64,000 nucleotides of DNA. Origin: Melanopsichium pennsylvanicum (Eukaryota; Basidiomycota; Ustilaginomycetes; Ustilaginales). The notes below the pieces were generated by a model, which worked only from the letters and a program-made list of their open reading frames with translations, was not told the DNA's origin and made no database searches. Positions 25,819 through 60,499 of the stretch are shown piece by piece. Within the stretch, counting starts at the first letter, position 1. Every line of letters begins with the position of its first letter. The position numbers and the translations under genes are program-made. The DNA is taken from positions 434,001 through 498,000 of the forward strand of contig OAPG01000020.1 in NCBI GenBank assembly GCA_900208305.1. Reading direction: 5' to 3'.

Positions 25819-26738
25819 AGCTGGTCAGCGAGAATTGTTGTTGATTCTAGCGAAAGACGGCTTTCACTTTCGATGGTGATGGAAGCGGACGACGAAAGTC
25901 GCAGGCGGATCAAAGGATCTAAAAGAGGTCTTGGTAAAGCTTGAGGTAAGAGATGGACGTCGGATGATCAACAGATGGAAAGGTGCAATCATGATAGAGT
26001 CCATCAACTCAGCCCATGGGGGCAGCTGGGAGGTCAAGTCGAGCGGAATTGCCGTATTTGGATGTTGGACTCTGCTGAATGAATTGCTTGCCTGCTTGCC
26101 TGCTTGCCTGCTTGCCTGCTTGCCTGCTTGCCTGCTTGCCTGCTTGCCTGCTTGCCTGCTTGCCTGCTTGCCTGCTTGCCTGCTTGCCTGCTTGCCTGCT
26201 TGCCTGCTTGCCTGCTTGCCTGCTTGCCTGCTTTGATGCATGTGGAGTTGCGACTGCAGACGCAGAATTCGACAATTTGTCCGATTGAATTTGAACCCTC
26301 TCGGATCGCCCATTTTTGTGGCCCCTGATTTTCAGCGTCGTCATTTGATCAGGTCTGTGTTGTGTTGTACAAAAATCGTATTCAAACCCGCTGCACGCTG
26401 CCTTTTCGCCGCAGTCATGGACCTAAGCCTTTCAACACAGCGCAGTCGAAATTCAGACTCAGTTGTGTGAATGCCCGCTCTAACAAAGTAAAAAGGTTGG
26501 TCTGACCTCGGTTCGTGGAGTATAGATGAGAAGGCTCCGGAAAAGTTGTCTTTCTCACTTTCAGGGTCCTGATGAAATCTCCCACGAAAAAATTCTAGAC
26601 GACACCCTGATAGCTCGAACTGGTGTCGAGAACCACTCTTCTTCGCCATCATCGTCAACATCATTTCCGCAACCACACCCTGCATCGTCAGTCGGACAGC
26701 TGCTTTCCGGGTAGCTTTATCCGACAAACTCAGCAACA
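25819..26738. other. Divergent promoter region with minisatellite
   Basis: 920 bases between NPC2 and RIO2, both transcribed outward. The only structure I see is the 8-bp minisatellite given separately. Confidence 0.5.
26086..26233. repeat. 8-bp minisatellite, about 18.5 copies
   Basis: A near-perfect tandem array of GCTTGCCT over 148 bases. All frames on both strands stay open and give LPAC/LLAC or KQASRQAG peptides; this follows from the repeat and is not evidence of coding. It lies about 270 bases upstream of NPC2 and 500 upstream of RIO2. Confidence 0.97.
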
Positions 26739-46587: not shown

Positions 46588-47259
46588 TGTTGAGCTGCTG
46601 AGCGAGGAAGATGATGATGGTCTTTGGATTGCGAGAATGGCGTTTCTACACAAAAAGAATCGCCGAAACAAAAGGCGCGCACGGTCACAGCTTCTCCCCT
46701 TTAGCAGGTGGAGGCTGTTTTGACCCGATCCGACCCTCTTCCCCTCCCCGATCCAATAGCATCCCAAGGTTTCTTTTTTGCACTATCATATATGTTACAC
46801 CACCGTTTTCATTTCATTGTAGAAGCACTCAAAAAAATCGAAGAGAGGGTGAATTCGAGGCTCGTCATTCTCACTTGAAATTGTGCAAGCTCGAGTTTAC
46901 TGCGCTCACCTCGACCATACATAGTTGGACACCTGGAGAAGATCCCGCACTTCTCCTCCTCCAATGGTTGGATCCTGGATGTTATCTGACCCACAGGCAC
47001 AGACAGGGATTGTTTGAGCCAAGAAAAAAAAGTTTCAAAGATGCCATTGTACTGAACACAGAGCCAAGAATGGTGGCCAATTCAAACCCTAAGGTGAAGA
47101 CTAAGAATATGAATGGTAGAGTGGATGAGCCCCACTCCTCCACAACTGACATGACCATGCCCTTATACACTATGGCTGTCCTGTCCCTTATCTGTATACT
47201 AGCCCCTCTTATTGCACTTGTAAGTGAACCTGGGCTCCATGCTTGTCAGTGCTGACTTC
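46588..47259. other. Unassigned sequence before the solo LTR
   Basis: 672 bases. The first part is the SDR promoter. From about 47040 the sequence encodes a short frame with a hydrophobic end (MPLYTMAVLSLICILAPLIA) that breaks at the solo LTR. It might be a truncated gene fragment, but I cannot identify it. Confidence 0.35.
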
Positions 47260-48268
47260 TGTCACGGGAGTGGGTCCCAAGGAAGAGGTCTGCGCAGACC
47301 AGAGATGTTGAATTGGCTGAGATCCGGTGGGAGAGCATGTCTCGACGGATCTCAGGGAGATCTGGTGGATATTGGTGGGCTCATGGGATTTAAGGTTAGC
47401 GCAGAACCAAGAAGTTGAATCGGACAAAATCCGGTGAGAGAGCAGGTCTCGACGGATCTCACAGAAATTCGGCGAGTGGCAGTGACTCGCCGGATATCAA
47501 AGGTATCGATGGCAAGGGGAGCATCTGCAACGGCAGCGACCAACGCCATGCCGGAACGACACATGGGCCGATCGACGCCCAGGGGGCAACGGAGAGAGAG
47601 CACGCGGGCGTGCTTGGAAGCACCCTGCCAAAGGACTAGGGGCAGTCTTATTGTGCAGGGGTCCAAGCTTGACGCACGCAGGTTGTACAGTACCGATGGA
47701 CCTTGCACACAATACATATATATAAATACTCTGTTCCCCGCTATCGGATGAGCGGAAGCTCATCCACTCTATCTTATATCTCAGTCACACATAGTTATCA
47801 GTACGTTGTACTTATTATACTCTTCACACGTCGCACATCGCAATACCATTTATTGCAATCCATATAGTCTGTGTCCCCGTCGGTGAACGGAGAACAACGT
47901 ATAGACGTTGTCGACATCCAATCGACGCTGTAGCACCTCAACTACAGGCGGAACCTCAACTGCGGGCCTGGCACCACAACCAGTCCCTCATATCTCCACC
48001 GGCAACGACGGCTGAGGTCTAACCCAGCTGCCAGCAGTATCCCGTTGGTGTTGTGACACTCGCATTGACCAAGTACCCCGTCCGAGCTTGCCACGTTACC
48101 TCTGTACGGAGTGTCACCAGCGGTCAGCCGATATCCGTCGAGAGATCGCCACTCACGGGATTCTCTTCGATATCCGTTGAGGCCAAGCTTAGCCGCCAGA
48201 ACTCACTGAAATCCGGCGAGTCGAGATTTCTCATGGGAAGTTGGATCTCTGGCACGCAACCGCTGACA
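47260..48268 (+). mobile_element. Solo LTR of the chromovirus family
   Basis: A 1009-base LTR that starts TGTCACGGG and ends GCTGACA, flanked by the perfect 5-bp duplication ACTTC (47255-47259 and 48269-48273). It is in the opposite orientation to the full element at 50287-59149 and clearly more diverged from its two LTRs than they are from each other. Many of the differences are CG to CA or TG. It is presumably what remained after LTR-LTR recombination. Confidence 0.95.
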
Positions 48269-48936: not shown

Positions 48937-50286
48937 GATCCAAGGGTGCGCCTTTGCTCCAAAAGAGCAACTTTGCTATTGATGCTCAGAATCCTGACAA
49001 TCTCAGTCCACCCTCTACCAATGCAGGTAACATCCCCAACCTCAAATGGTCCTTCTCACAGTCTCACTCCAAGCTCTTGAATGGAGGTTGGGTACACAAG
49101 CAAACTGTGACCAATCTGCTGTCTTCTCCACTTGTTGCTGTGGTCAAGCAATGTTTGTCTGCTTATGCCTATTGCATCTGCACTGTCATTGGGTGGCTGA
49201 GTGGGGATTTGTACTCAACAGTTGTTAAGGCTGTAGGGTCTAGGTACCGCGGGGCGGCTACAGCCGGAGTAGGGTCTACGGGTACAGAGAGGTTGTAGGC
49301 GTAGGCGACACAGGCGGTTGGGGGTCAGAGCACACTACTACGTTGCTATAGAGCTAACTAAGTAATACATGTGACGAGGTCCGGAGGCAATTTCATGTTG
49401 GGCGGGGGCGGGGTGGTAAGGTCCAAGAACTATCAACCACCTCCCATGCCAACTGCAGTAACTACCTCCCACTGCGGCACTACAATATTAGGTTGCCAAC
49501 GGCCGTATTCTGCTTACAGAGGGGCCAGCCGCGGTTGGATGGTAGGAGGGTCATGTTAGGCCAACCACTCCTCTGCAAGGGATCTGGAGAGGATTGGTTG
49601 TGGCTCAATTGCAACGGTTGCTCAATTGGGAGGGTGGGGCCAAGCGCCCACTCTTTGGACTACGGTTGGTGGGGCACTAACAACAGTACTATTTGTAATA
49701 CAGCCAAAAATGAGGACAATAGGAACTGTGTTGAATGATGCCAAAGAGGGCAATCTATGGAGTTTCCCTCAAGGCATACCACACACTCTGCAAGCAGGTC
49801 CTGAGGGTGCTGAGTATTTACTTGTTTTTTTTTTAAAGGCAATTTCAACACTAGTTGGCACTACATTTGTGCTTGACAATTGGATCATGCATACCCTGCA
49901 CAATGTTCTTGCCAAAGACCTTTGGTTGGGACACTTCCATATTCAACACGATTCCAACCCCAGATCTGTATATGGTTGCAGCAAAGCAGAATAAAACCCG
50001 GCTTTCTCTCTCCATGAGGCAAGGAATGCAGTCAGTGCAAATCCTGGTGGTCAAGTAGAGTCTTGCTATGTATATGCACTTTCTCCAGCAGATTCAGACT
50101 ATTGCACCAAGTGGTGGTGGCTGGATCAAGATCACCAAGTATTGTCAATTCTCTGCTTGCCCAACCTTTTGCTTCTGCACATGTCCATGTCAAAAAGGGC
50201 AGACTTTGTGAGTTACACTGGCATAAGAATGCTGAATGTTTCAACTTCAAGCAGGTGATTTCCTGAGGTTTCCCCTATCAAGTAAC
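48937..50286 (+). repeat. 1350-bp direct repeat, left copy
   Basis: This segment (first bases GATCCAAGGG, last CAAGTAAC) recurs at 59150-60499 in the same orientation and length. I saw about six single-base differences by eye. The retrotransposon lies exactly between the two copies, touching the end of this one and the start of the other. Confidence 0.96.
49222..49686. mobile_element. 465-bp insertion in the pseudogene, left copy
   Basis: It interrupts the first cupin reading frame. Removing it joins CTCAACAG to TACTATTTG and restores the frame LNSTICNTAKNED. The bases CAACAG precede the insertion and end it, so it has either a 6-bp target duplication or a 3-bp duplication (CAG) with short TTGTTA/TAACAA ends. 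No coding capacity seen. It predates the 1350-bp duplication, since both copies carry it. Confidence 0.75.
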
Positions 50287-51297
50287 TGTCAGCGGTCGCG
50301 TGCCAGAGATCCGAATTCCCGTGAGAAAGCGCGACTCACCGGATTTCAGTGAGTTCCGGCGGTTAAGCTTGGCCTCAACGGATATCGAAGAGAATCCCGC
50401 GAGTGGCGATCTCTCGACGGATATCGGCTGACCGCTGGTGACACTCCGTACAGAGGTAACGCGGCAAGCTCGGACGGGGTACTTGATCGACGCGAGTGTC
50501 ACGACGTCGACGGGATACTGCTGATGGCTGGGTTAGACCTCAGCCGTCGTTGCCGGTGGAGATATGAGGGACTGGTTGTGGTGCCAGGCCCGCGGTTGAG
50601 GTTCCGCCTGTAGTTGAGGTGCTACAGCGTCGATTGAGGTGTCGACGACGTCTATACGTTGTTCTCCGTTCACCGACGGGGACACAGACTATATGGATCG
50701 CAATAAATGGTATTGCAATGTGCGACGTGTGAAGAGTATGGTAAGTACGACGTACTGATAACTATGTGTGGCTGAGATATACGATAGAGTGGATGAGCTT
50801 CCGCTCATCCGATAGCGGGGAACAGAGTATTTATATATATGTATCGTGTGCAAGGTCCATCGGTACTGTACGACCTGCGTGCGTCGAGCTTGGACCCCCG
50901 CACGATAAGACCGCCCCCTAGTCCTTCGGCAGGGTGCTTCCGAGCACACCCGCGTGCTCCCTCTCCGTTGCCCCCTGGGCGTCGATTGGCCCACGTGTCG
51001 TTCTGGCGTGGCGTTGGTCGCCGCCATCGCAGATGCTCCCCTTGCCATTGATACCTTCGATATCCGGCGAGTCACTGCCACTCGCCGAATTTCCGTGAGA
51101 TCCGTTGAGACCTGCTCTCTCACCGGATTTCGTCCGATTCAACTTCTCGGTCCTGCGCTAACCTTAAATCCCATGAGCCCACCAATATCCACCAGATCTC
51201 CCTGAGATCCGTCGAGACATGCTCTCCCACCGGATCTCAGCCGATTCAACATCTCTGGTCTGCGCAGACCTCTTCCTTGGGACCCACTCCCGTGACA
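50287..51297 (-). repeat. 3' LTR of the chromovirus
   Basis: 1011 bases, TGTCACGGG...GCTGACA in element sense. It contains a TATA-like run (about 50826-50841), a perfect 8-bp hairpin just downstream of it, and three copies of the four-half-site dyad module (50313-50425, 51059-51131, 51165-51238). Confidence 0.96.
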
Positions 51298-51310
51298 CTA
51301 CCCCCCCTTC
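51298..51310 (-). promoter_or_regulatory. Polypurine tract (plus-strand primer)
   Basis: In element sense GAAGGGGGGGTAG lies directly against the TGTCAC start of the 3' LTR, the position and composition expected for the PPT that primes second-strand synthesis. Confidence 0.85.
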
Positions 51311-51332
51311 GAGAGCCGAGCTCCGTTGAGGC

Positions 51333-51339
51333 TTAAATA
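51333..51339 (+). promoter_or_regulatory. TATA-like element of the antisense gene
   Basis: TTAAATA lies 61 bases before the antisense gene's ATG and outside the LTR, followed by a C-rich leader. Position fits a core promoter; it is a weak, short match. Confidence 0.4.
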
Positions 51340-51399
51340 GGGTCGGCGGGTGTTCCCCCGACTTGTTCTTCCACCAACAGCACCTTCTAAACCGTCAAG

Positions 51400-52545
51400 A
51401 TGTCGAACCACTCGAATAATGCCCCTTCCGCTGCGTCATCGCGACCAGCGTTGACACGACTGCCTGCCCTCAGGGCAGAAGAGCCTGTGCGCCGTAGCGC
51501 CAGGCTTCGCAACCGAAATCCTGCCACTTGGGCAGTGACAACACCTTCGGCTGTCGGCCTCGAGGCCACAGCTTCGTCGTCCCCTGCTGCTGGCGAGCAG
51601 CCCATCGAAATTGTGGCTGCTGAGCAGCTCGTCGCGTTGCGGTCGACGCCGCGGCCACTGGAACCGCTGTTTTTGGGAAACGATGTTGCGGAGGAGGAGG
51701 AAGAGCGGCTGGAGGCGATGGAGGTGGAGGAGTCGGTCGTAGGGAGGATTAGCGAGGTCGGGGAGGAACCTGTCGCTCCGCTCGTTGGGCCTCATGTGCC
51801 CAACTACCTCGAGGTTGCGCTGTGGGCGGAGTCGCTTATCGCTCCGGTGTTGCTGGTGTTCGTGGCGTGCGAGGCCTGGCCCCCCACTTGGGTGGTATCG
51901 GAGGGTTCCGTGACGGCCGGTCGACTGCATCGTCTGGTTCTCCTTTGGCTAACCGAAGGCTGCATGCCTTGGCCGAGCTGGCAATGCGCCCGCTGCGCCA
52001 AGCTTGGTATACCGTAAGTACCACTGCCCCCTTCGACGTTCGATACTCACTGCTGACTCTGGTTCTTCCTTTTTTTGTTTCGTCCCAGTTGTTTCCCGTC
52101 GGCCTTCGCTGACGTGCTTTCTGTCGGTGGCAAGGGCCGAACTCCGCGCGCTTGTGTGCATTGCCATCTGGGCGGCCACAAGAAGTGCGTGCGAACCGAG
52201 AGGGCATTGCCAACGATGGTATACGCTGGCGACGCCCCTCCTAGCCATCTACATCGAGGCGAGCGTGGCGTCGAACGAGCTCACGTCACGGGAGCGGGGG
52301 GTCGAGGGTTGGGAGAGGTACGTGGCCTCGACCGTGACTCGGATGGTGTGGCAGACCCGAACTGGGCGCACGCGATGCGTATCATTTGGTCTGCCTCGCC
52401 TCGCGGTCGGCGCGTGCCGGTACTGACGACGATCGAGGAATACTTCGATCGTCAGCGGCGACTGCGGTCCATGTGCTCGCCCTTCGAGGATATCGAGCCT
52501 CCTTCGGTACCTGGGCCTTCGTTAGCCCCCGAGTCTGCGGAGTAG
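51400..52545 (+). CDS. Antisense accessory protein of the retrotransposon, Zn2Cys6-like
   Basis: This gene lies inside the element between pol and the 3' LTR but on the opposite strand. Two exons, 51400-52013 and 52089-52545, with a 75-base GTAAGT...CCCAG intron, give 356 residues. The splice restores CAKLGIPCFPSAFADV, supplying the third cysteine. The six cysteines 196, 199, 206, 227, 230 and 238 form C-x2-C-x6-C-x20-C-x2-C-x7-C, which resembles the fungal Zn2Cys6 DNA-binding cluster but with a longer middle linker and fewer basic residues. An acidic Glu-rich patch (EEEEERLEAMEVEE) lies around residues 95-110. No retroviral family is recognised. Role unknown; a regulatory or DNA-binding protein is my inference. 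Confidence 0.72.
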
Positions 52546-52966
52546 TCTGTGCCCGCTGGCTGTGTCGACTTGTTGCAATGGCAGTGCCTCGTTACCCATT
52601 GAACCTAGTGTGAGCTTGATTGCGTGACTTTCGGTGTGCAACAGGTGCGACGACTCTGAGGAATATACTTGTCGACTCGCATCGCCCGTTAAGGCCTGAG
52701 ATCCTTTGGATCATGCATTCCTCGGCGGATTTTGTGCCTTTTTGGGTTCTCGTTACCCCGCGATTTTTTTTTTTTTAATTTTTTCTGAGATCCGTTGAAT
52801 TGTGCAGTACTCGGCGGATTTCGTGGAAATTCCCTGAGTCGGGGTCATTGTCCGGATCTCGATTCCTGCAAACTTCTACCTTCGCCGCTCGACATCGTCG
52901 TCGAGCTTCTCACCATCTTACTCTCCTGTGATGGCATGCATTGCGGCTCGCAAGATCCTCTTCAGC
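52546..52966. other. Spacer between antisense gene and pol end
   Basis: 421 bases forming the tail-to-tail junction of the antisense gene and pol. It holds one full dyad module (52788-52861), a half module (52698-52733), and a T-run (about 52766-52776) that may act in 3' end formation. Confidence 0.6.
52788..52861. repeat. Four-half-site dyad module in spacer
   Basis: Half-sites at 52788-52800 (GAGATCCGTTGAA), 52811-52823 (CTCGGCGGATTTC), 52827-52839 (GAAATTCCCTGAG) and 52849-52861 (TTGTCCGGATCTC), spaced 10, 3 and 9 bases. A half module with the same first pair, spaced 10, lies at 52698-52733. Confidence 0.8.
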
Positions 52967-55900
52967 TTAGTGTCTCCGTCCCCCCGCCAATTCCTCATAC
53001 TCCCGGATGAGGTCTGGGCAGTTGAGACAGTCTGTCGGTTCCCACGAGGCTGCGTCCTTGGGGTAGCCCCTCCATTGGACTTTGTACTGCACTTGCCTAC
53101 CCTGTTTTCGCTTTCCCACAATGGCCTCTACCTCGAATTCTAGAGTGTCGTCCGGTAGGGGCGGCGTGACTTCGAGGGTGGAGCGCTGTGGGAGTGAGCT
53201 CGCCCTTTGAGGTTCGAGCATCGAGACATGGAAAACGTCGTGTACGCGCAAACTTGCTGGGAGTTGGAGCCAGTATGCTCTTCTGCCGACTCGTTTGAGG
53301 ATGGGGAACGGGCCTGCTAACCTTGTGTCGAGTTTGGGACTGGGTCGAGCCGTCTTCCAGTTCTTTCGGTTGACGTAGACCATGTCTCCAACTTTGAACT
53401 CAATGTCCTTCCGTTTGCGGTTATATTGCTCAACGGTTTGGCTTTGAGCGTACCTGATTTGCTCCTGTAGATACTCCGTAAATTCTTGTCTTCGGGTGGC
53501 AAACTCTTTTCTCTTGGGGTCGAGCACACCGACTTGTTCTGGGAGATCGGGGTGTGACTTTGGATTCCACCCGTAGCAAGCAAAGAAAGGCGAGACTCCT
53601 ATGCTGCTGTGGACCGTGTTGTTGTAAACGAACTCGGCCATCGGCAGCCAGGTTACCCAGTTGTCCTGCTCGTAGTTGCAGTACATACGGAGGTACTGCT
53701 CGACAACTTGATTGACTTGCTCCGTTTGCCCGTCCGTCTGTGGGTGGTAGGCTGTGCTGAGCGAGTGGTGGATGACCAGCTTGTTGGTGAACTCTTTCCA
53801 TGCCGCCGAGACAAATTGTCGGCCGCGGTCTGAGACAATGTGCTCCAGTACCCCGAAACGGGACATAACTTGGTCTTTGAGCATCTTTGCCGTCTGCTCC
53901 GACGTTATTGTCTTGTACGTCGGGGTTAAGATGGCATATTTGGTCAACCGGTCGACCACTACGAAGATCGAGTCATACCCCTCCGATTTAGGTAACCCTT
54001 CAATGAAATCCATCGAGATGGAATTCCAGGGTCTTGACGGCGTCGACAGCGGCTGCAAAAGGCCATATGGTCGGTGTCGCGGTGCTTTATATCGAGCGCA
54101 CACTGGGCAGCTTGCTACATAGTCAGCAACCCATGCTGCCATATTTGGCCACCAATAATGCCGCCTTGTGAGCTCGAGGGTGGCGTCTCGACCTGCATGG
54201 CCAGCGGTAGCGCCGTCGTGGCATTGGGACATTACCATGTATCTCAGGTGCTCCACCGAGAGCGAGCGATCCTTTGCTTCGGCGGCACTCCGAGTGTTGC
54301 GTTGACCTTTCTTACCTGGTAATGTGACTCGCGGCACCACTAGCCGACCGTCGCAATACCACAGGCCATGTCTAACTTTGAAAGGTTGCTTCTGATGAAG
54401 CTCTGCGAGCTCGGCATCGAGCGGCTGGAAAGTCTTTACGAGTTGGACCAGCCCTCCCTCCGTGATATCGGACATCGTTGGCTTTAGCATATTTATTTGA
54501 GATTCGGCGAGTAGCTCTTTCTTGGCGAATTTTGGTGAAATCCGCCGAGTTGAGTCCACTCGGCGGTTTTCGAAATCCTTGGCAAATACTCGTGCTGGTA
54601 ACAGCTGTCGGACGTTGTGTAGGTCTTCTTCTGCGGTCGGCTGCATATCACTTCGTCGTGTCAACGCATCTGGCTCTCCCGCTTTATCTCCTGGTCTGTA
54701 TTGGAGTACGAAGTCGAAGTCAGCGAGTAACACTGACCATCGAGCCTGCCGACCTGTGATCTTCCGCTGAGACTTGAAGTATTTGAGCGCCTCGTGATCA
54801 GTGAGAATAATGAGCTGACTAGGTAGTCCTGCAAGCATGTGCCGCCAGTGGTTGAGACAGACGACAACAGCGAGGAGTTCCTTGTCATGGATCTCGTAGT
54901 TCTTCTCCGCCGATGCCATCTTGCGCGAGTAGAATGCTATCGGGTGCCATCGTCTGTTGTGCTCTTGTTTGAGTACTCCGGCAAGAGCGAAGTCGCTTGC
55001 GTCCGTTTCCAACCGGGTAGGACGATGGTAGTCGAAGTGTTTGAGAACCCCAGCGGTGGTGAACATTTCCACCAGCTTGTGGAAAGCAGCGCGAGCGTCG
55101 TCAGGGAGGTCGAACTTCTTGAATCGCTCTGTGGGCTTAACGAGGGAAGTGAGCGGTCTCGCTATACGTGCAAAGTGAGAGATGAATCTGCGATAGAAGT
55201 TGGCGAACCCGAGGAAGCGTTGGATGTCGTGTATAGACTCCGGCATCGGCCATTCCTTGATAGTCCTGATCTTGTCGGGGTCCATCTTGATACCTGACGG
55301 CTTGATGATGTAGCCGAGGAACTCAACAGTATCGGTATGGAACACGCACTTCGAGAGTTTGGCGAATAACCGCCATACCTTGAGCCTACTGAGCACCGTC
55401 CTGACGTGCTCGATGTGTTCCTTCTTGTTGTCGCTGAAGATCAGGAAGTCGTCAAGGTATACTACCACGTATACGCCAATGATGTTGCGGTAGATGGTGT
55501 TGATGAGCGATTGGAAGTGCGCGGGCGCATTTGCCAATCCGAATGGCATGACCAGATACTCATACAGTCCGAGTTGAGTACCAAACGCGGTTTTCCATTC
55601 GTCCCCGTCGGCGATCCTAACCAAGTTGTAAGCTGCCTTTAGGTCCAGCTTGGTATAGATCTTCGCTTTTCGTAGGAGGAACAGCTGCTCCTCAATTAGA
55701 GGCAGTGGAGCTCGGTTCTTGACCGTGACCTCGTTGAGACCGCGGTAGTCTACGCAGAGTCGCAGGCCGCCGTCCTTCTTAGGCACGAAAAGGACGGGTG
55801 ATCGCGCCGGGCTCTTTGAGGGCCGAATGAATCCTTTCTCGAGATTCTCTTCGAGGTACTTCCTCAGCTCGGCCATCTCCTTAGGGCCCTTGAGATATAG

Positions 55901-56731
55901 CGGACCTTGAGGTGGCGTCGAACTGGGTAGTAGCTTGATGTGCAAGTCGTGCTTCGTGTGAGGGGGAAGCTTGTCCGCTTTGACCTCGTCGAATACATCC
56001 TTGAGGGGGTAGTACGGGGCTGGGATGTCGACGGCAGTGGGAGGCTCTTCTAGTGTCGTTTCCATCTCTATGCCTTTGTCGCCTCCCGTGGGGACAAAGC
56101 CAAACGACGGGAGCGACGTCGGAGGAGCGCTGATTAGCATGACCCCTATGGGGCCATCCCGTAGTGCCGCCTGAACGAGCTTGTTGGCGTCGACGAACTC
56201 GTAGCCATGTACTACTAAGTTTGCTCGAGATTCGGCAGATTGGCCGGTCTCGGCGGATTTCGGTGAAATCCCTTGAACGACCGCGTCTGACCGGATCTCG
56301 TTGGTTTTTCCAAAATCGAGCTGTCCAGTATCCCAATGGACCCTTGGCTGTAGGCGTCGTAGTTCATCGTACCCCAGGATGAAATCGTAGTCGCTAGCGT
56401 CAGCGACGGCAACCTTGAGCATCCCTAGGTGTTGTCCTCCTATGACTACGTCGACGTCAGCAGCGCTCGTGATCGTGAGGGAATGTCCGGTCACTCCGTG
56501 TACGGTTCTGTTTTTTATGGGTTTTGTGGTTATCGAGTACTTGCGAACAAACGGAGCTGAAACTATAGACAATGCAGCGCCGGTGTCGGCGAGAATGCTA
56601 GCAGGATGGTGGTTGACCGTACCTGCTAGCTCGAGTACTGAGGCACCGGAAGCTGCAGAGAAACATAATGAACAATCTTGACATATACAAGGTGATGGCG
56701 AAGGCGGTCTTAGAGCGATGCATGCCATCAT
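52967..56731 (-). CDS. pol: Pol polyprotein: protease, RT, RNase H, integrase, chromodomain
   Basis: 1254 residues, uninterrupted. The aspartic protease site is LADTGAA at residues 48-54. RT runs from about 270 to 500 with SPVLFVPKKDGGLRLCVDYR (ends) and YLDD at 425-428. RNase H starts with LETDASDFAL near 574. Integrase has His838, His845, Cys875 and Cys878 of the HHCC zinc site and the D908, D968, E1004 triad (SMDF, SDRG, TDGQTEQ). A chromodomain near 1195-1245 (VEAIVGKRKQGRQVQYKVQWRG region, key aromatic residues present) places it among chromoviruses and would direct insertion to marked chromatin. Two linker segments, residues 145-168 and 721-744, are encoded by in-frame palindromic modules. 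The ATG overlaps the gag stop. Confidence 0.96.
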   Translation of the reverse strand: MMACIALRPPSPSPCICQDCSLCFSAASGASVLELAGTVNHHPASILADTGAALSIVSAPFVRKYSITTKPIKNRTVHGVTGHSLTITSAADVDVVIGGQHLGMLKVAVADASDYDFILGYDELRRLQPRVHWDTGQLDFGKTNEIRSDAVVQGISPKSAETGQSAESRANLVVHGYEFVDANKLVQAALRDGPIGVMLISAPPTSLPSFGFVPTGGDKGIEMETTLEEPPTAVDIPAPYYPLKDVFDEVKADKLPPHTKHDLHIKLLPSSTPPQGPLYLKGPKEMAELRKYLEENLEKGFIRPSKSPARSPVLFVPKKDGGLRLCVDYRGLNEVTVKNRAPLPLIEEQLFLLRKAKIYTKLDLKAAYNLVRIADGDEWKTAFGTQLGLYEYLVMPFGLANAPAHFQSLINTIYRNIIGVYVVVYLDDFLIFSDNKKEHIEHVRTVLSRLKVWRLFAKLSKCVFHTDTVEFLGYIIKPSGIKMDPDKIRTIKEWPMPESIHDIQRFLGFANFYRRFISHFARIARPLTSLVKPTERFKKFDLPDDARAAFHKLVEMFTTAGVLKHFDYHRPTRLETDASDFALAGVLKQEHNRRWHPIAFYSRKMASAEKNYEIHDKELLAVVVCLNHWRHMLAGLPSQLIILTDHEALKYFKSQRKITGRQARWSVLLADFDFVLQYRPGDKAGEPDALTRRSDMQPTAEEDLHNVRQLLPARVFAKDFENRRVDSTRRISPKFAKKELLAESQINMLKPTMSDITEGGLVQLVKTFQPLDAELAELHQKQPFKVRHGLWYCDGRLVVPRVTLPGKKGQRNTRSAAEAKDRSLSVEHLRYMVMSQCHDGATAGHAGRDATLELTRRHYWWPNMAAWVADYVASCPVCARYKAPRHRPYGLLQPLSTPSRPWNSISMDFIEGLPKSEGYDSIFVVVDRLTKYAILTPTYKTITSEQTAKMLKDQVMSRFGVLEHIVSDRGRQFVSAAWKEFTNKLVIHHSLSTAYHPQTDGQTEQVNQVVEQYLRMYCNYEQDNWVTWLPMAEFVYNNTVHSSIGVSPFFACYGWNPKSHPDLPEQVGVLDPKRKEFATRRQEFTEYLQEQIRYAQSQTVEQYNRKRKDIEFKVGDMVYVNRKNWKTARPSPKLDTRLAGPFPILKRVGRRAYWLQLPASLRVHDVFHVSMLEPQRASSLPQRSTLEVTPPLPDDTLEFEVEAIVGKRKQGRQVQYKVQWRGYPKDAASWEPTDCLNCPDLIREYEELAGGRRH
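54499..54571. repeat. 73-bp dyad module inside pol (RNase H-integrase linker)
   Basis: Half-sites at 54499-54511, 54521-54533, 54537-54549 and 54559-54571, spaced 9, 3 and 9 (GAGATTCGGCGAG, CTTGGCGAATTTT, GAAATCCGCCGAG, CTCGGCGGTTTTC). On the coding strand it is read without a stop as pol residues 721-744. Confidence 0.85.
56227..56299. repeat. 73-bp dyad module inside pol (protease-RT linker)
   Basis: Half-sites at 56227-56239, 56249-56261, 56265-56277 and 56287-56299, spaced exactly 9, 3 and 9 (GAGATTCGGCAGA, CTCGGCGGATTTC, GAAATCCCTTGAA, CTGACCGGATCTC). Translated as pol residues 145-168; both pol modules give an ISPK peptide in the same frame. Confidence 0.85.
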
Positions 56732-58098
56732 TGCATCGCTCCAAGGTCGTTTCCCTTGTCCTTGTGGTAGGGCTCGCCTGCGTCGTGATCGTCGGCGAAG
56801 AGGTTGGGGTCAAAGTGGTCTTCAAGACCGCCATCGTCTTCGCGATGGTCTTCAGCTCCGTCTCCTTCCTCTGGTGAGCCGTCCTGTGGTTTCTCTGACT
56901 CCAACACCACGTGCGCTCGCATCTGTGGTCCTGATGGTCTAGCCGGGTAAACCGTTGGCTTGGCGTCTGGACAGTTCCGCTGCCAATGCCCGGTCTTGCC
57001 GCAGACCCTACAAGCGTCGCTGTTAAATGTCGTCGGGCCGGGGACAACCCTTCGGTCGTCGCGAGGTCTTGGTGGTGCTTCCCGTACCGGCAGCTTCTGT
57101 GCCAGATGAGGGGGCAACGGTCGAGAGCCAGTTCTCTGGGGAATGCCCGGTTCGGTATGAGCAGTCCTGATTGCTGGGGTTGGGGCGAAGCGGACAGCAT
57201 TCTGCTGATGCCGCATACGCTGGCGATCAATGTCCTCGACCTCCCGGTACCAGGCCCACTGGTCTTCAGGTGGGTTACGCTCGAACTTCTCCTGAAGTGA
57301 GCGAGTAAGGCTCCCTCGGAAGAGGTCGATGACAAACTCAGGGTCCTCCATGTGGCACTGAGCTGCCAGGTCTCGGAATTGCTCGACATGTCGCGTTGCT
57401 GCTCCTGGTGTGTCGGTAATAAGCCTCAACGCTAGGAGTTTGTTGTAGGCATTGACCCTGTCGCTGCGCTGATTGTACAGCTCCCTGAGTCGGGTGGTGA
57501 AGTGGCTCCAATCATGGAAGAGCATCCCTTGACGATGCCGATCGACGCGGAGCTTACCCTTCCACCACTCTCGAGCGGTGCCCTCGAGCTGGGCTGCCGT
57601 GTGTAAGATCATCGAAGTATGGTCGTACACACCATTAGCCTTGAACCAAGCGTCGGCCTCGAGAATGAAGATATCGATGTCGCGAGTGTCGAGCTTGGGG
57701 AATGGAGTCTTGAGGGCAGCGTGGGGCTGAGTGTCCTGTTCACTGCCAGTGCCGGTCCATGCCTCTGGGGTCACCGGTTTGACATACCGAGGTCCAGTAG
57801 GCGTAGCGTACTTCTCTTGGTCGGTGTACGCTCGTCGGTCGAGAATGTCAAAGGTGACGGACCGAGGGTGTGGTCTAGTCGCAGGCGTGGGTGTCTCGAG
57901 ACCACCAAGGTAGGACTCATCCGCCTGCTGCGAGGCTCGACGGGTCGGGGAGCTTAGATCATGCTCCCTGGCTCGTCGACCAGGGGATGGGGTCTCCTGT
58001 TGGTCGAGCCGAGCCTTGAGTGCGGCATTGTCTACCTGCTGCTGCTCAAGGAGGGCGATGAGGCGGTCGAGTCTGTCATGTAGTGCAGAGTCGGCCAT
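56728..58098 (-). CDS. gag: Gag protein with CCHC zinc knuckle
   Basis: 456 residues, single frame, ATG only 40 bases after the 5' LTR. An N-terminal coiled-coil (LHDRLDRLIALLEQQQ) precedes the capsid-like region (about 115-290: DIFILEADAWFKANG, LEGTAREWWKGKL, FIDLFRGSLTRSLQEKF-type helices) typical of Ty3/gypsy Gag. A single CCHC knuckle, CRVCGKTGHWQRNC, lies near residue 370, followed by an acidic tail rich in Asp and Glu. It forms the virus-like particle and packages the RNA. The last codons, ATGCAATGATGG on the coding strand, place the gag TGA inside the pol start (ATGA overlap), so pol is in the -1 frame relative to gag. Confidence 0.93.
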   Translation of the reverse strand: MADSALHDRLDRLIALLEQQQVDNAALKARLDQQETPSPGRRAREHDLSSPTRRASQQADESYLGGLETPTPATRPHPRSVTFDILDRRAYTDQEKYATPTGPRYVKPVTPEAWTGTGSEQDTQPHAALKTPFPKLDTRDIDIFILEADAWFKANGVYDHTSMILHTAAQLEGTAREWWKGKLRVDRHRQGMLFHDWSHFTTRLRELYNQRSDRVNAYNKLLALRLITDTPGAATRHVEQFRDLAAQCHMEDPEFVIDLFRGSLTRSLQEKFERNPPEDQWAWYREVEDIDRQRMRHQQNAVRFAPTPAIRTAHTEPGIPQRTGSRPLPPHLAQKLPVREAPPRPRDDRRVVPGPTTFNSDACRVCGKTGHWQRNCPDAKPTVYPARPSGPQMRAHVVLESEKPQDGSPEEGDGAEDHREDDGGLEDHFDPNLFADDHDAGEPYHKDKGNDLGAMQ

Positions 58099-58127
58099 CT
58101 TGGTGAACTTGGGGCGTCGCTTGTACG

Positions 58128-58137
58128 ATCCACTCTA
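58128..58137 (-). promoter_or_regulatory. Primer binding site, probably self-primed
   Basis: In element sense TAGAGTGGAT starts one base after the 5' LTR. It is the exact complement of ATCCACTCTA inside the LTR (plus-strand 58637-58646), about 40 bases downstream of the TATA run, near the expected RNA 5' end. This arrangement matches the self-priming of the Tf1/sushi group. I see no tRNA 3'-end complement at the LTR edge. Confidence 0.65.
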
Positions 58138-58138
58138 A

Positions 58139-59149
58139 TGTCAGCGGTCGCGTGCCAGAGATCCGAATTCCCGTGAGAAAGCGCGACTCGCCGGATTTCA
58201 GTGAGTTCCGGCGGTTAAGCTTGGCCTCAACGGATATCGAAGAGAATCCCGCGAGTGGCGATCTCTCGACGGATATCGGCTGACCGCTGGTGACACTCCG
58301 TACAGAGGTAACGCGGCAAGCTCGGACGGGGTACTTGATCGACGCGAGTGTCACGACGTCGACGGGATACTGCTGATGGCTGGGTTAGACCTCAGCCGTC
58401 GTTGCCGGTGGAGATATGAGGGACTGGTTGTGGTGCCAGGCCCGCGGTTGAGGTTCCGCCTGTAGTTGAGGTGCTACAGCGTCGATTGAGGTGTCGACGA
58501 CGTCTATACGTTGTTCTCCGTTCACCGACGGGGACACAGACTATATGGATCGCAATAAATGGTATTGCAATGTGCGACGTGTGAAGAGTATGGTAAGTAC
58601 GACGTACTGATAACTATGTGTGGCTGAGATATACGATAGAGTGGATGAGCTTCCGCTCATCCGATAGCGGGGAACAGAGTATTTATATATATGTATCGTG
58701 TGCGAGGTCCATCGGTACTGTACGACCTGCGTGCGTCGAGCTTGGACCCCCGCACGATAAGACCGCCCCCTAGTCCTTCGGCAGGGTGCTTCCGAGCACA
58801 CCCGCGTGCTCCCTCTCCGTTGCCCCCTGGGCGTCGATTGGCCCACGTGTCGTTCCGGCGTGGCGTTGGTCGCCGCCATCGCAGATGCTCCCCTTGCCAT
58901 CGATACCTTCGATATCCGGCGAGTCACTGCCACTCGCCAAATTTCCGTGAGATCCGTTGAGACCTGCTCTCTCACCGGATTTCGTCCGATTCAACTTCTC
59001 GGTCCTGCGCTAACCTTAAATCCCATGAGCCCACCAATATCCACCAGATCTCCCTGAGATCCGTCGAGACATGCTCTCCCACCGGATCTCAGCCAATTCA
59101 ACATCTCTGGTCTGCGCAGACCTCTTCCTTGGGACCCACTCCCGTGACA
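58139..59149 (-). repeat. 5' LTR of the chromovirus
   Basis: 1011 bases, same length as the 3' LTR, with six differences by my alignment. The TATA-like run is at about 58678-58693. Downstream of it in element sense an 8-bp perfect stem GGATGAGC/GCTCATCC with a GGAA loop (58643-58662) sits at the presumed start of R. Confidence 0.96.
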
Positions 59150-60499
59150 GATCCAAGGGTGCGCCTTTGCTCCAAAAGAGCAACTTTGCTATTGATGCTC
59201 AGAATCCTGACAATCTCAGTCCACCCTCTACCAATGCAGGTAACATCCCCAACCTCAAATGGTCCTTCTCACAGTCTCACTCCAAGCTCTTGAATGGAGG
59301 TTGGGTACACAAGCAAACTGTGACCAATCTGCTGTCTTCTCCACTTGTTGCTGTGGTCAAGCAATGTTTGTCTGCTTATGCCTATTGCATCTGCACTGTC
59401 ATTGGGTGGCTGAGTGGGGATTTGTACTCAACAGTTGTTAAGGCTGTAGGGTCTAGGTACCGCGGGGCGGCTACAGCCGGAGTAGGGTCTACGGGTACAG
59501 AGAGGTTGTAGGCGTAGGCGACACAGGCGGTTGGGGGTCAGAGCACACTACTACGTTGCTATAGAGCTAACTAAGTAATACATGTGACGAGGTCCGGAGG
59601 CAATTTCATGTTGGGCGGGGGCGGGGTGGTAAGGTCCAAGAACTATCAACCACCTCCCATGCCAACTGCAGTAACTACCTCCCACTGCGGCACTACAATA
59701 TTAGGTTGCCAACGGCCGTATTCTGCTTACAGAGGGGCCAGCCGCGGTTGGATGGTAGGAGGGTCATGTTAGGCCAACCACTCCTCTGCAAGGGATCTGG
59801 AGAGGATTGGTTGTGGCTCAATTGCAACGGTTGCTCAATTGGGAGGGTGGGGCCAAGCGCCCACTCTTTGGACTACGGTTGGTGGGGCACTAACAACAGT
59901 ACTATTTGTAATACAGCCAAAAATGAGGACAATAGGAACTGTGTTGAATGATGCCAAAGAGGGCAATCTATGGAGTTTCCCTCAAGGCATACCACACACT
60001 CTGCAAGCAGGTCCTGAGGGTGCTGAGTATTTACTTGTTTTTTTTTTAAAGGCAATTTCAACACTAGTTGGCACTACATTTGTGCTTGACAATTGGATCA
60101 TGCATACGCTGCACAATGTTCTTGCCAAAGACCTTTGGTTGGGACACTTCCATATTCAACACGATTCCAACCCCAGATCTGTATATGGTTGCAGCAAAGC
60201 AGAATAAAACCCGGCTTTCTCTCTCCATGAGGCAAGGAATGCAGTCAGTGCAAATCCTGGTGGTCAAGTAGAGTCTTGCTATGTATATGCACTTTCTCCA
60301 GCAGACTCAGACTATTGCACCAAGTGGTGGTGGCTGGATCAAGATCACCAAGTATTGTCAATTCTCTGCTTGCCCAACCTTTTGCTTCTGCATGTGTCCA
60401 TGATAAAAAGGGCAGACTTTGTGAGTTACACTGGCATAAGAATGCTGAATGTTTCAACTTCAAGCAGGTGATTTCCTGAGGTTTCCCCTATCAAGTAAC
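59150..60499 (+). repeat. 1350-bp direct repeat, right copy
   Basis: The second copy of 48937-50286, starting directly at the outer end of the 5' LTR. It carries the same pseudogene pieces and the same 465-bp insertion (59435-59899). Its right edge runs on into unique sequence (GTTCTTCC) that the left copy lacks. Confidence 0.96.
59435..59899. mobile_element. 465-bp insertion in the pseudogene, right copy
   Basis: The same insertion as at 49222-49686, at the same position in the duplicated segment, so it was present before the duplication. Confidence 0.75.

What the first reader, a model, noticed from the sequence alone, without database searches (positions are those of the whole stretch)
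51400..52545. A spliced gene on the antisense strand inside an LTR retrotransposon
Seen: two plus-strand exons with a canonical 75-base intron, between pol and the polypurine tract of a minus-strand element. They code for 356 residues with six cysteines in a C-x2-C-x6-C-x20-C-x2-C-x7-C order, one of which is at the splice junction. A TATA-like site lies 61 bases before the ATG and outside the LTR. Known: antisense ORFs occur in a few retroelements and retroviruses, but a zinc-cluster-like one in a fungal chromovirus is not familiar to me. Inference: an accessory regulator of the element.
Basis: partly seen in the sequence, partly recalled or inferred. Interest (0 to 1): 0.85.

Follow-up and report, generated by a model that had tools for sequence, protein, structure and literature searches.

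The report
Spliced antisense gene in smut retrotransposon
A jumping element in a smut fungus carries, on the strand opposite its own genes, an intron-containing gene for a cysteine-rich protein that selection has protected and recombination has shuffled, and it may be a switch the element uses on itself.

Summary
In detail: 51400-52545 encodes 356 residues in two exons, antisense to gag-pol, between pol and the 3' LTR of a chromovirus, probably of Melanopsichium pennsylvanicum. It is a real gene. Of 29 copies with the intron, 28 keep the donor and 29 the acceptor; exon-1 indels keep frame; median dN/dS is 0.28, and 0.085 in the cysteine domain. Two diverged element lineages carry homologues with the intron at the same place; Ustilago has related proteins.

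Two things were unexpected. The gene is a diversity island (synonymous diversity 0.20 against 0.05 in gag and pol) with mosaic alleles, beginning about 20 bp before the ATG. In a sister lineage 20 places share a clean deletion of the gene, against 6 elements that keep it; the 7 gene-less places examined also lack a U3 segment that the gene-bearing ones keep.

Best reading: a trans-acting nuclear regulator working on U3 that restrains its own element, like Ty1 copy number control in logic. An anti-silencer like VANC is the main rival. The class (antisense aORF; brtn in Boty) is known, so this is a new variant. No RNA was examined, and the function is inferred.

The parts
51400..52013 (+). exon 1 of the antisense gene (residues 1-204 and two bases of codon 205)
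52014..52088 (+). 75-nt intron; 70-94 nt in other copies
   Evidence: donor GT[A/G]AGT in 28 of 29 copies, TCCCAG acceptor in 29 of 29
52089..52545 (+). exon 2, stop codon included
51961..52188 (+). cysteine domain (C188-C238, across the intron)
   Evidence: median dN/dS 0.085 for residues 187-240; the six cysteines kept in lineages 2 and 3
51333..51339 (+). TATA-like site of the antisense gene
   Evidence: no change in the 23 aligned copies
51380..52554 (+). diversity island coextensive with the gene
51298..51309 (-). polypurine tract of the element
   Evidence: sequence reading
50287..51297 (-). 3' LTR of the minus-strand element
58139..59149 (-). 5' LTR; 99.3% identical to the 3' LTR
52967..56809 (-). 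pol: protease, RT, RNase H, integrase, Chromo domain
56728..58134 (-). gag open frame (stop to stop), with zinc knuckle
51099..51128 (+). U3 motif copy 1, GATCCG-N19-CGGAT: candidate target site
   Evidence: candidate only
51206..51235 (+). U3 motif copy 2; window 51175-51234 has the lowest diversity of the aligned stretch (pi 0.004)
52789..52819 (+). motif copy in the spacer between the gene and pol (N20); a copy with one change at 52700-52732

Best explanation
51400-52545 is a genuine accessory gene of a Ty3/gypsy chromovirus. Selection on the protein and on the splice sites is shown; transcription antisense to gag-pol and splicing are inferred from that. Because the intron is antisense, the sense genomic RNA is not spliced there, so the intron can survive retrotransposition (inference; it fits the copies seen). 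The protein most likely acts in the nucleus, in trans, on U3 sequences that lie upstream of both the gag-pol promoter and its own, and restrains the element as its dose rises (inference). Loss of the gene together with a U3 target segment would release an element. Exchange of gene alleles by template switching would give elements of different regulatory type, which would explain why this gene alone carries old, mosaic diversity (inference).
For: Real protein: in 25 full-length copies median dN/dS is 0.28, 0.085 in the Cys domain; exon-1 indels are 7 of 7 multiples of three, intron indels 50 of 63 not, inherited events counted repeatedly; splice sites kept. Element gene: 31 of 31 distinct copies read have the LTR directly upstream; 33 of 34 lineage-1 pol ends have all or part of it; lineages 2 and 3 carry it antisense with the intron at the same place and phase. 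Island: pS 0.197 against 0.046 in gag and 0.050 in pol of the same five elements; over 253 pairs r = 0.05 with pol-end pS; recombination signal in the gene, 0 of 1000 permutations as low. Restraint rather than need: 20 places share one deletion junction at 99-100% identity, against 6 gene-bearing elements; 7 of the 20 were examined for a 49-bp U3 segment and all 7 lack it, while 6 of 6 gene-bearing elements have it in at least one LTR. Parallel: Ty1 mosaics whose breakpoints coincide almost precisely with gag, the source of the restriction factor p22 (PMC7055915, passages).
Against: No RNA evidence. No localisation or DNA binding was shown; no DNA-binding family matches and the models are too weak to decide. 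The gene-less lineage and its U3 deletion are probably one event, so the association has n = 1. More gene-less copies can also mean trans-supply or drift; three of the six gene-bearing lineage-2 elements have pol deletions, which may itself explain fewer copies. No island is seen in lineage 2. In three of six multi-copy allele groups the gene is about twice as diverged as the end of pol, so a raised mutation rate is not excluded. Gene divergence correlates weakly with LTR divergence (r = 0.32), and the LTR stretch also shows a recombination signal (1 in 1000). The U3 motif was chosen after seeing it and is not in the lineage-2 repeat unit.
Confidence: 0.42

Rival explanations
1. An element-encoded activator or anti-silencer: the protein binds non-coding repeats of its element and keeps them from being silenced, as VANC does for VANDAL elements; gene-less copies are supplied in trans.
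For: U3 tandem repeats differ between lineage-2 copies; VANC targets often form tandem repeats in non-coding regions (PMC5735166, abstract and one results section); lineage 1 keeps the gene at 33 of 34 pol ends, wholly or in part.
Against: The gene-less lineage spread to 20 places and lost a U3 segment, odd if that segment recruited a helper.
Confidence: 0.27
2. A protein acting after transcription in trans, for example on Gag, particle assembly, nuclear import or target choice.
For: Ty1 p22 acts on Gag, not on DNA (PMC4599808 and PMC8458377, titles and abstract starts in a listing). A cysteine domain could bind protein or RNA.
Against: No Pfam domain of any kind in the window protein. The shared U3 arrangement suits transcriptional control, but only weakly.
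Confidence: 0.16
3. Antisense RNA is what matters: overlap with the sense RNA makes double-stranded RNA and the protein is incidental.
For: Antisense transcription over the 3' part of the sense RNA is implied; proposed for plant elements (PMC7264820, parts 1 and 2 of 3).
Against: Codon-level constraint, frame-keeping indels and cysteines kept over diverged lineages.
Confidence: 0.05
4. About the island only (independent of the function): not selection for diversity, but introgression from older, now lost lineages, or a raised mutation rate in this stretch, on a backbone homogenised by a recent burst.
For: Mosaic alleles; in groups 6, 7 and 9 the gene is about twice as diverged as pol; no island in lineage 2.
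Against: The left edge lies about 20 bp before the ATG and diversity falls after the stop, unlikely for random exchanges; in groups 1, 2 and 5 the gene is no more, or hardly more, diverged than pol.
Confidence: 0.42
5. Chance open frames.
For: Other open frames of 100-170 aa exist on both strands here.
Confidence: 0.01

Closest known systems
Antisense additional ORFs (aORF-3R) of plant LTR retrotransposons: Grande gene23, RIRE2, Retand ORF4, PvRetro13 (PMC7264820, PMC11963269)
   [quoted passage not shown] own promoter and nuclear product in Grande.
   Different: Plants; Retand's TRP28 is a Pfam family and none matched here. Here an intron at a fixed place, a six-cysteine domain and a diversity island. 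The word 'intron' is not in the Retand paper's main text.
brtn of Boty-like elements, Botrytis cinerea (Zhao et al. 2011, seen only as a citation and in passages of PMC8365987, PMC4227169, PMC5987419)
   Same: Fungal chromodomain element with an additional antisense gene.
   Different: Ascomycete; no Botrytis protein among our hits. BRTN itself was not compared.
Ty1 copy number control (p22) and canonical/Ty1' mosaics (PMC7055915)
   Same: Self-encoded restriction is proposed here; a gene-sized stretch of divergence with breakpoints at the gene's borders.
   [quoted passage not shown] here a separate antisense gene.
VANC anti-silencing proteins of VANDAL elements (PMC5735166)
   Same: Element-encoded protein; non-coding repeats in the element change fast.
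   Different: Plant VANDAL elements; sequence relation not tested; binding not shown here.
Zn2Cys6 fungal zinc clusters (pattern recalled)
   Same: C-x2-C-x6-C and C-x2-C-x7-C halves; in the weak model a short helix follows each CxxC.
   Different: 18-20 residues between the halves, no Pfam match.

Membership tests
Antisense aORF (aORF-3R) of LTR retrotransposons | Open frame antisense to gag-pol between pol and the 3' LTR | tested here: met
Antisense aORF (aORF-3R) of LTR retrotransposons | Present in most copies of the family, conserved like other element proteins | tested here: met
   Lineage 1: 30 of 34 pol ends with both exons, 3 with one, 1 with none; pN/pS 0.29 against 0.17 gag and 0.24 pol in five elements. 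Lineage 2 fails this: 20 gene-less places, 6 gene-bearing
Antisense aORF (aORF-3R) of LTR retrotransposons | Antisense transcript from its own promoter | not testable with these tools
   Only a conserved TATA-like site
Chromovirus (Ty3/gypsy with chromodomain) | RT, RNase H, integrase in that order and a C-terminal Chromo domain | tested here: met
Zn2Cys6 fungal transcription factor | Match to the family's sequence profile | tested here: not met
   None at E<=1 for the window protein or 16 relatives; HMMER filters drop many weak matches
Zn2Cys6 fungal transcription factor | Cysteine spacing with a short loop between the halves (recalled: 5-12 residues) | tested here: not met
   20 here, 18 in L043, L041 and Ustilago P0025
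Zn2Cys6 fungal transcription factor | Binuclear zinc fold | tested here: inconclusive
   Mean pLDDT 50, about 60-70 in the Cys region; no usable fold match
Ty1-type self-restriction (works-like question) | Element protein reduces mobility as copy number rises | not testable with these tools
   Indirect only: number of gene-less places
VANC-type anti-silencer (works-like question) | Binding to element repeats and loss of silencing | not testable with these tools
   Repeats exist; no binding or methylation data

The most novel reading that the evidence does not exclude
The gene is a polymorphic self-immunity locus of a retrotransposon. Each element carries one of about ten allele groups, recombination moves alleles among copies of a common gag-pol-LTR backbone, and rare alleles are favoured because they escape restraint by resident copies, as with phage immunity repressors. 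Loss of both the repressor gene and its U3 target creates an unrestrained derivative that spreads, as lineage 2 may have done.
Probability: 0.18. Interest if true: 0.9.

Novelty: new variant of a known kind. Interest (0 to 1): 0.68.

Why it matters
The review read here states that the function of antisense accessory genes of retrotransposons is not known (PMC7264820). This family offers a natural experiment within one genome: a lineage that keeps the gene, a sister lineage most of whose copies lost it, apparently with a U3 segment, and about ten allele groups on one backbone. That makes the function testable. The antisense intron shows how a reverse-transcribed element can keep a spliced gene. 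A gene-sized peak of diversity suggests that regulatory type, rather than gag or pol, may be what is diversified.

Full report
What is there. The window lies in a 21.1-Mb genome (contig C20). Database proteins named Melanopsichium pennsylvanicum come from contigs of the same lengths, for example 551283 for C20, so the organism is inferred to be that smut. A minus-strand Ty3/gypsy chromovirus spans 50287-59149, with 1011-bp LTRs 99.3% identical, gag, and a pol with protease, RT, RNase H, integrase and Chromo domains. Public annotation has a gene here (P0005, MEPE_06408), but its 304-aa model skips residues 154-205; a 356-aa model exists for another copy, P0001.

Is it a gene? Exon 1 has 46 matches in the genome, 40 at 83-100% identity and 6 at 37-39%; exon 2 has 45. 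The 40 loci fetched with these two searches (20 each) reduce to 31 distinct copies. L010 (LTR-like sequence inside the intron) and L020 (sequence changes at the donor, near a contig end) were set aside, leaving 29. Of these, 28 have GT[A/G]AGT, one has ATAAGT, and all 29 end in TCCCAG; intron length is 70-94 nt. Four more (L006, L008, L015, L018) lose the 3' end of the gene and were dropped, leaving 25. In exon 1, 7 of 7 indels are multiples of three; in the intron 50 of 63 are not; in exon 2 of the 25 there are none, the 19 listed being in the four dropped copies (inherited events count repeatedly). Pooled pN/pS is 0.31 and median dN/dS 0.28; medians by region are 0.39 (residues 1-130), 0.085 (187-240) and 0.26 (241-356). 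By windows of 17 residues three N-terminal windows reach 0.96-1.15, so constraint is uneven. Of the 25, 13 have no premature stop; the other 12 carry 13, 12 of them TGA, mostly at arginine codons that hold a CpG.

How old is the association? Two further lineages in this genome carry a homologue at the same place and orientation. Lineage 2 (L043-L048) has pol about 66-70% and gag 39-42% identical, and an antisense gene 35-41% identical over the aligned parts, 439 aa in L043. L042 holds one end of a further lineage-2 copy. Lineage 3 (L041) has a pol 63% identical, and its exon 2 holds stops. In L043 and L041 the intron splits the codon just before the third of the six cysteines, as in the window, and the six cysteines are kept. 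Proteins of Ustilago hordei, U. nuda, U. tritici and relatives show the same cysteines, and several open frames end at the same splice point; their genomic position could not be read here. The two protein searches gave 36 and 88 hits; named ones come only from Melanopsichium and Ustilago, three have no name, and about 8000 candidates were scored each time. No Pfam family matched the window protein; single relatives gave three at E 0.08-0.99.

The island. In 23 copies with complete flanks, diversity per 60-bp window is 0.004-0.041 in the LTR stretch, 0.019 at the PPT and TATA, 0.05-0.18 from 51355 to 52554, 0.019-0.075 in the spacer and 0.009-0.047 at the end of pol. The change begins about 20 bp upstream of the ATG. 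In five elements read through pol and gag, mean distance is 1.3-2.7% per 300-bp window from 52846 on, 5.7% in the first spacer window and 9.4% in the gene. Synonymous diversity is 0.046 in gag, 0.050 in pol and 0.197 in the gene. Over 253 pairs the gene's pS averages 0.167 against 0.055 at the end of pol, exceeds it in 92% of pairs and does not correlate with it (r = 0.05); with LTR distance the gene correlates weakly (r = 0.32). Clustering at 5% gives ten groups, four of them single copies. Within groups 1, 2 and 5 the gene is no more, or hardly more, diverged than pol, within groups 6, 7 and 9 about twice as much, so a raised mutation rate is not excluded. Alleles are mosaic: of pairs among 203 informative sites 47% are incompatible, 29% within 50 bp and 55% beyond 300 bp, and none of 1000 permutations gave so low a neighbour score; the LTR stretch gave 1 in 1000 and the end of pol 27%. 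L036 is close to L027 in its 5' part and to L035 in its 3' part. Lineage 2 shows no island in the copies compared, three for exon 2 and four for exon 1. The sequencing method of the assembly is unknown to me; mixing of repeats could make some mosaics, but would hardly place a border at the gene.

A natural deletion. Of 34 lineage-1 pol ends matching over the whole query, 30 have both exons nearby, 3 have one and 1 has none. Of 22 diverged pol ends examined, 5 show a hit nearby, one of them a lineage-1 fragment, so 4 have a related gene. Three gene-less loci (L053-L055) lack the stretch from just before the ATG to near the stop. A 201-bp probe across that junction gave 33 matches: 20 over its full length at 99-100% identity, 12 that are the two halves at 6 gene-bearing elements, and 1 partial. 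The three loci also lack 49 bp of U3 that L043 and L046 keep. A 120-base probe for that segment listed 50 matches, only 40 of 77 candidates being scored: full-length ones lie at all 6 gene-bearing elements, in one or both LTRs, while 5 gene-less places, one of them L055, show only the two ends. Together 7 of the 20 gene-less places were examined, and all 7 lack the segment. Other full-length matches, many diverged, lie elsewhere and were not placed. So gene and segment appear to have been lost together, probably once. This is the strongest hint at function: the gene is not needed in cis for spread, and its loss went with higher copy number. Caveats: one event, possible trans-supply, and three of the six gene-bearing elements (L043, L044, L046) have a pol deletion.

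Possible target. U3 of lineage 1 holds two copies of GATCCG-N19-CGGAT 107 bp apart, and the spacer between gene and pol one with N20 (10 matches in the window over both strands and all LTRs, 0.37 expected in shuffles, at most 5 in one shuffle; pattern chosen after seeing it). A wider scan with up to three changes gives many weak matches that I do not count, apart from 52700-52732 with one change. The window over most of the second copy is the least diverse of the stretch. The genome holds 345 matches against 1 for the reversed control; among those listed most are LTR-type sequences, so this number reflects copy number. Lineage 2 has instead a 53-bp tandem repeat in U3. U3 of the 3' LTR lies next to the antisense promoter and U3 of the 5' LTR upstream of gag-pol, so one protein could act on both; this is inference.

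Structure. The better of two models (32 sequences) has block pLDDT 72-85 for residues 131-180, 60-70 around most of the cysteines with a short helix after each CxxC, and 64-72 for two C-terminal helices; its mean is 50. No fold match is usable.

Known and new. [quoted passage not shown] PMC11963269, passages). Boty, with a CHROMO domain, carries the antisense gene brtn (PMC4227169, PMC8365987, passages; the original paper was not read). The class is therefore known. A conserved antisense intron, a paired Cys3 domain, a gene-sized diversity island and a linked loss of gene and U3 segment were not met in what I read; the searches are listed under Tried and rejected. [quoted passage not shown] Verdict: a new variant of a known kind, a real and selected gene, its function inferred.

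Noticed in passing
52255-52257 (codon 261) and copies among L001-L039: Codon 261, just after the cysteine domain, is TGA in 8 of 25 full-length copies on several allele backgrounds, while three other conserved arginine codons of the same kind show TGA 0, 0 and 1 times. Recurrent CpG change, recombination or a selected truncation are open.
   Followed up: partly
48937-50286 and 59150-60499: The element is flanked by two direct copies, 99.6% identical, of a 1350-bp sequence that abut its LTRs; no short target-site duplication is seen at its ends.
   Followed up: no
47258-48268: A lone LTR-like copy of the same family in the opposite orientation, 94% identical.
   Followed up: no
L043, L044, L046: Three lineage-2 elements carry the antisense gene but a pol lacking about residues 628-1208, with LTRs 99.5-99.9% identical: recent derivatives that kept the gene.
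   Followed up: partly
L047 (G000:C23, near 197578): A lineage-2 copy with a deletion that removes the intron and the end of exon 1 with the first half of the cysteine domain, yet leaves a 334-residue open frame.
   Followed up: partly
L010 (G000:C15:441654): A copy with what begins like an LTR of the same family inside the intron of the antisense gene; exon 2 follows about 1 kb further on.
   Followed up: no
26085-26233: A tandem array: self-matches at offsets of 32, 40 and 48 bases.
   Followed up: no
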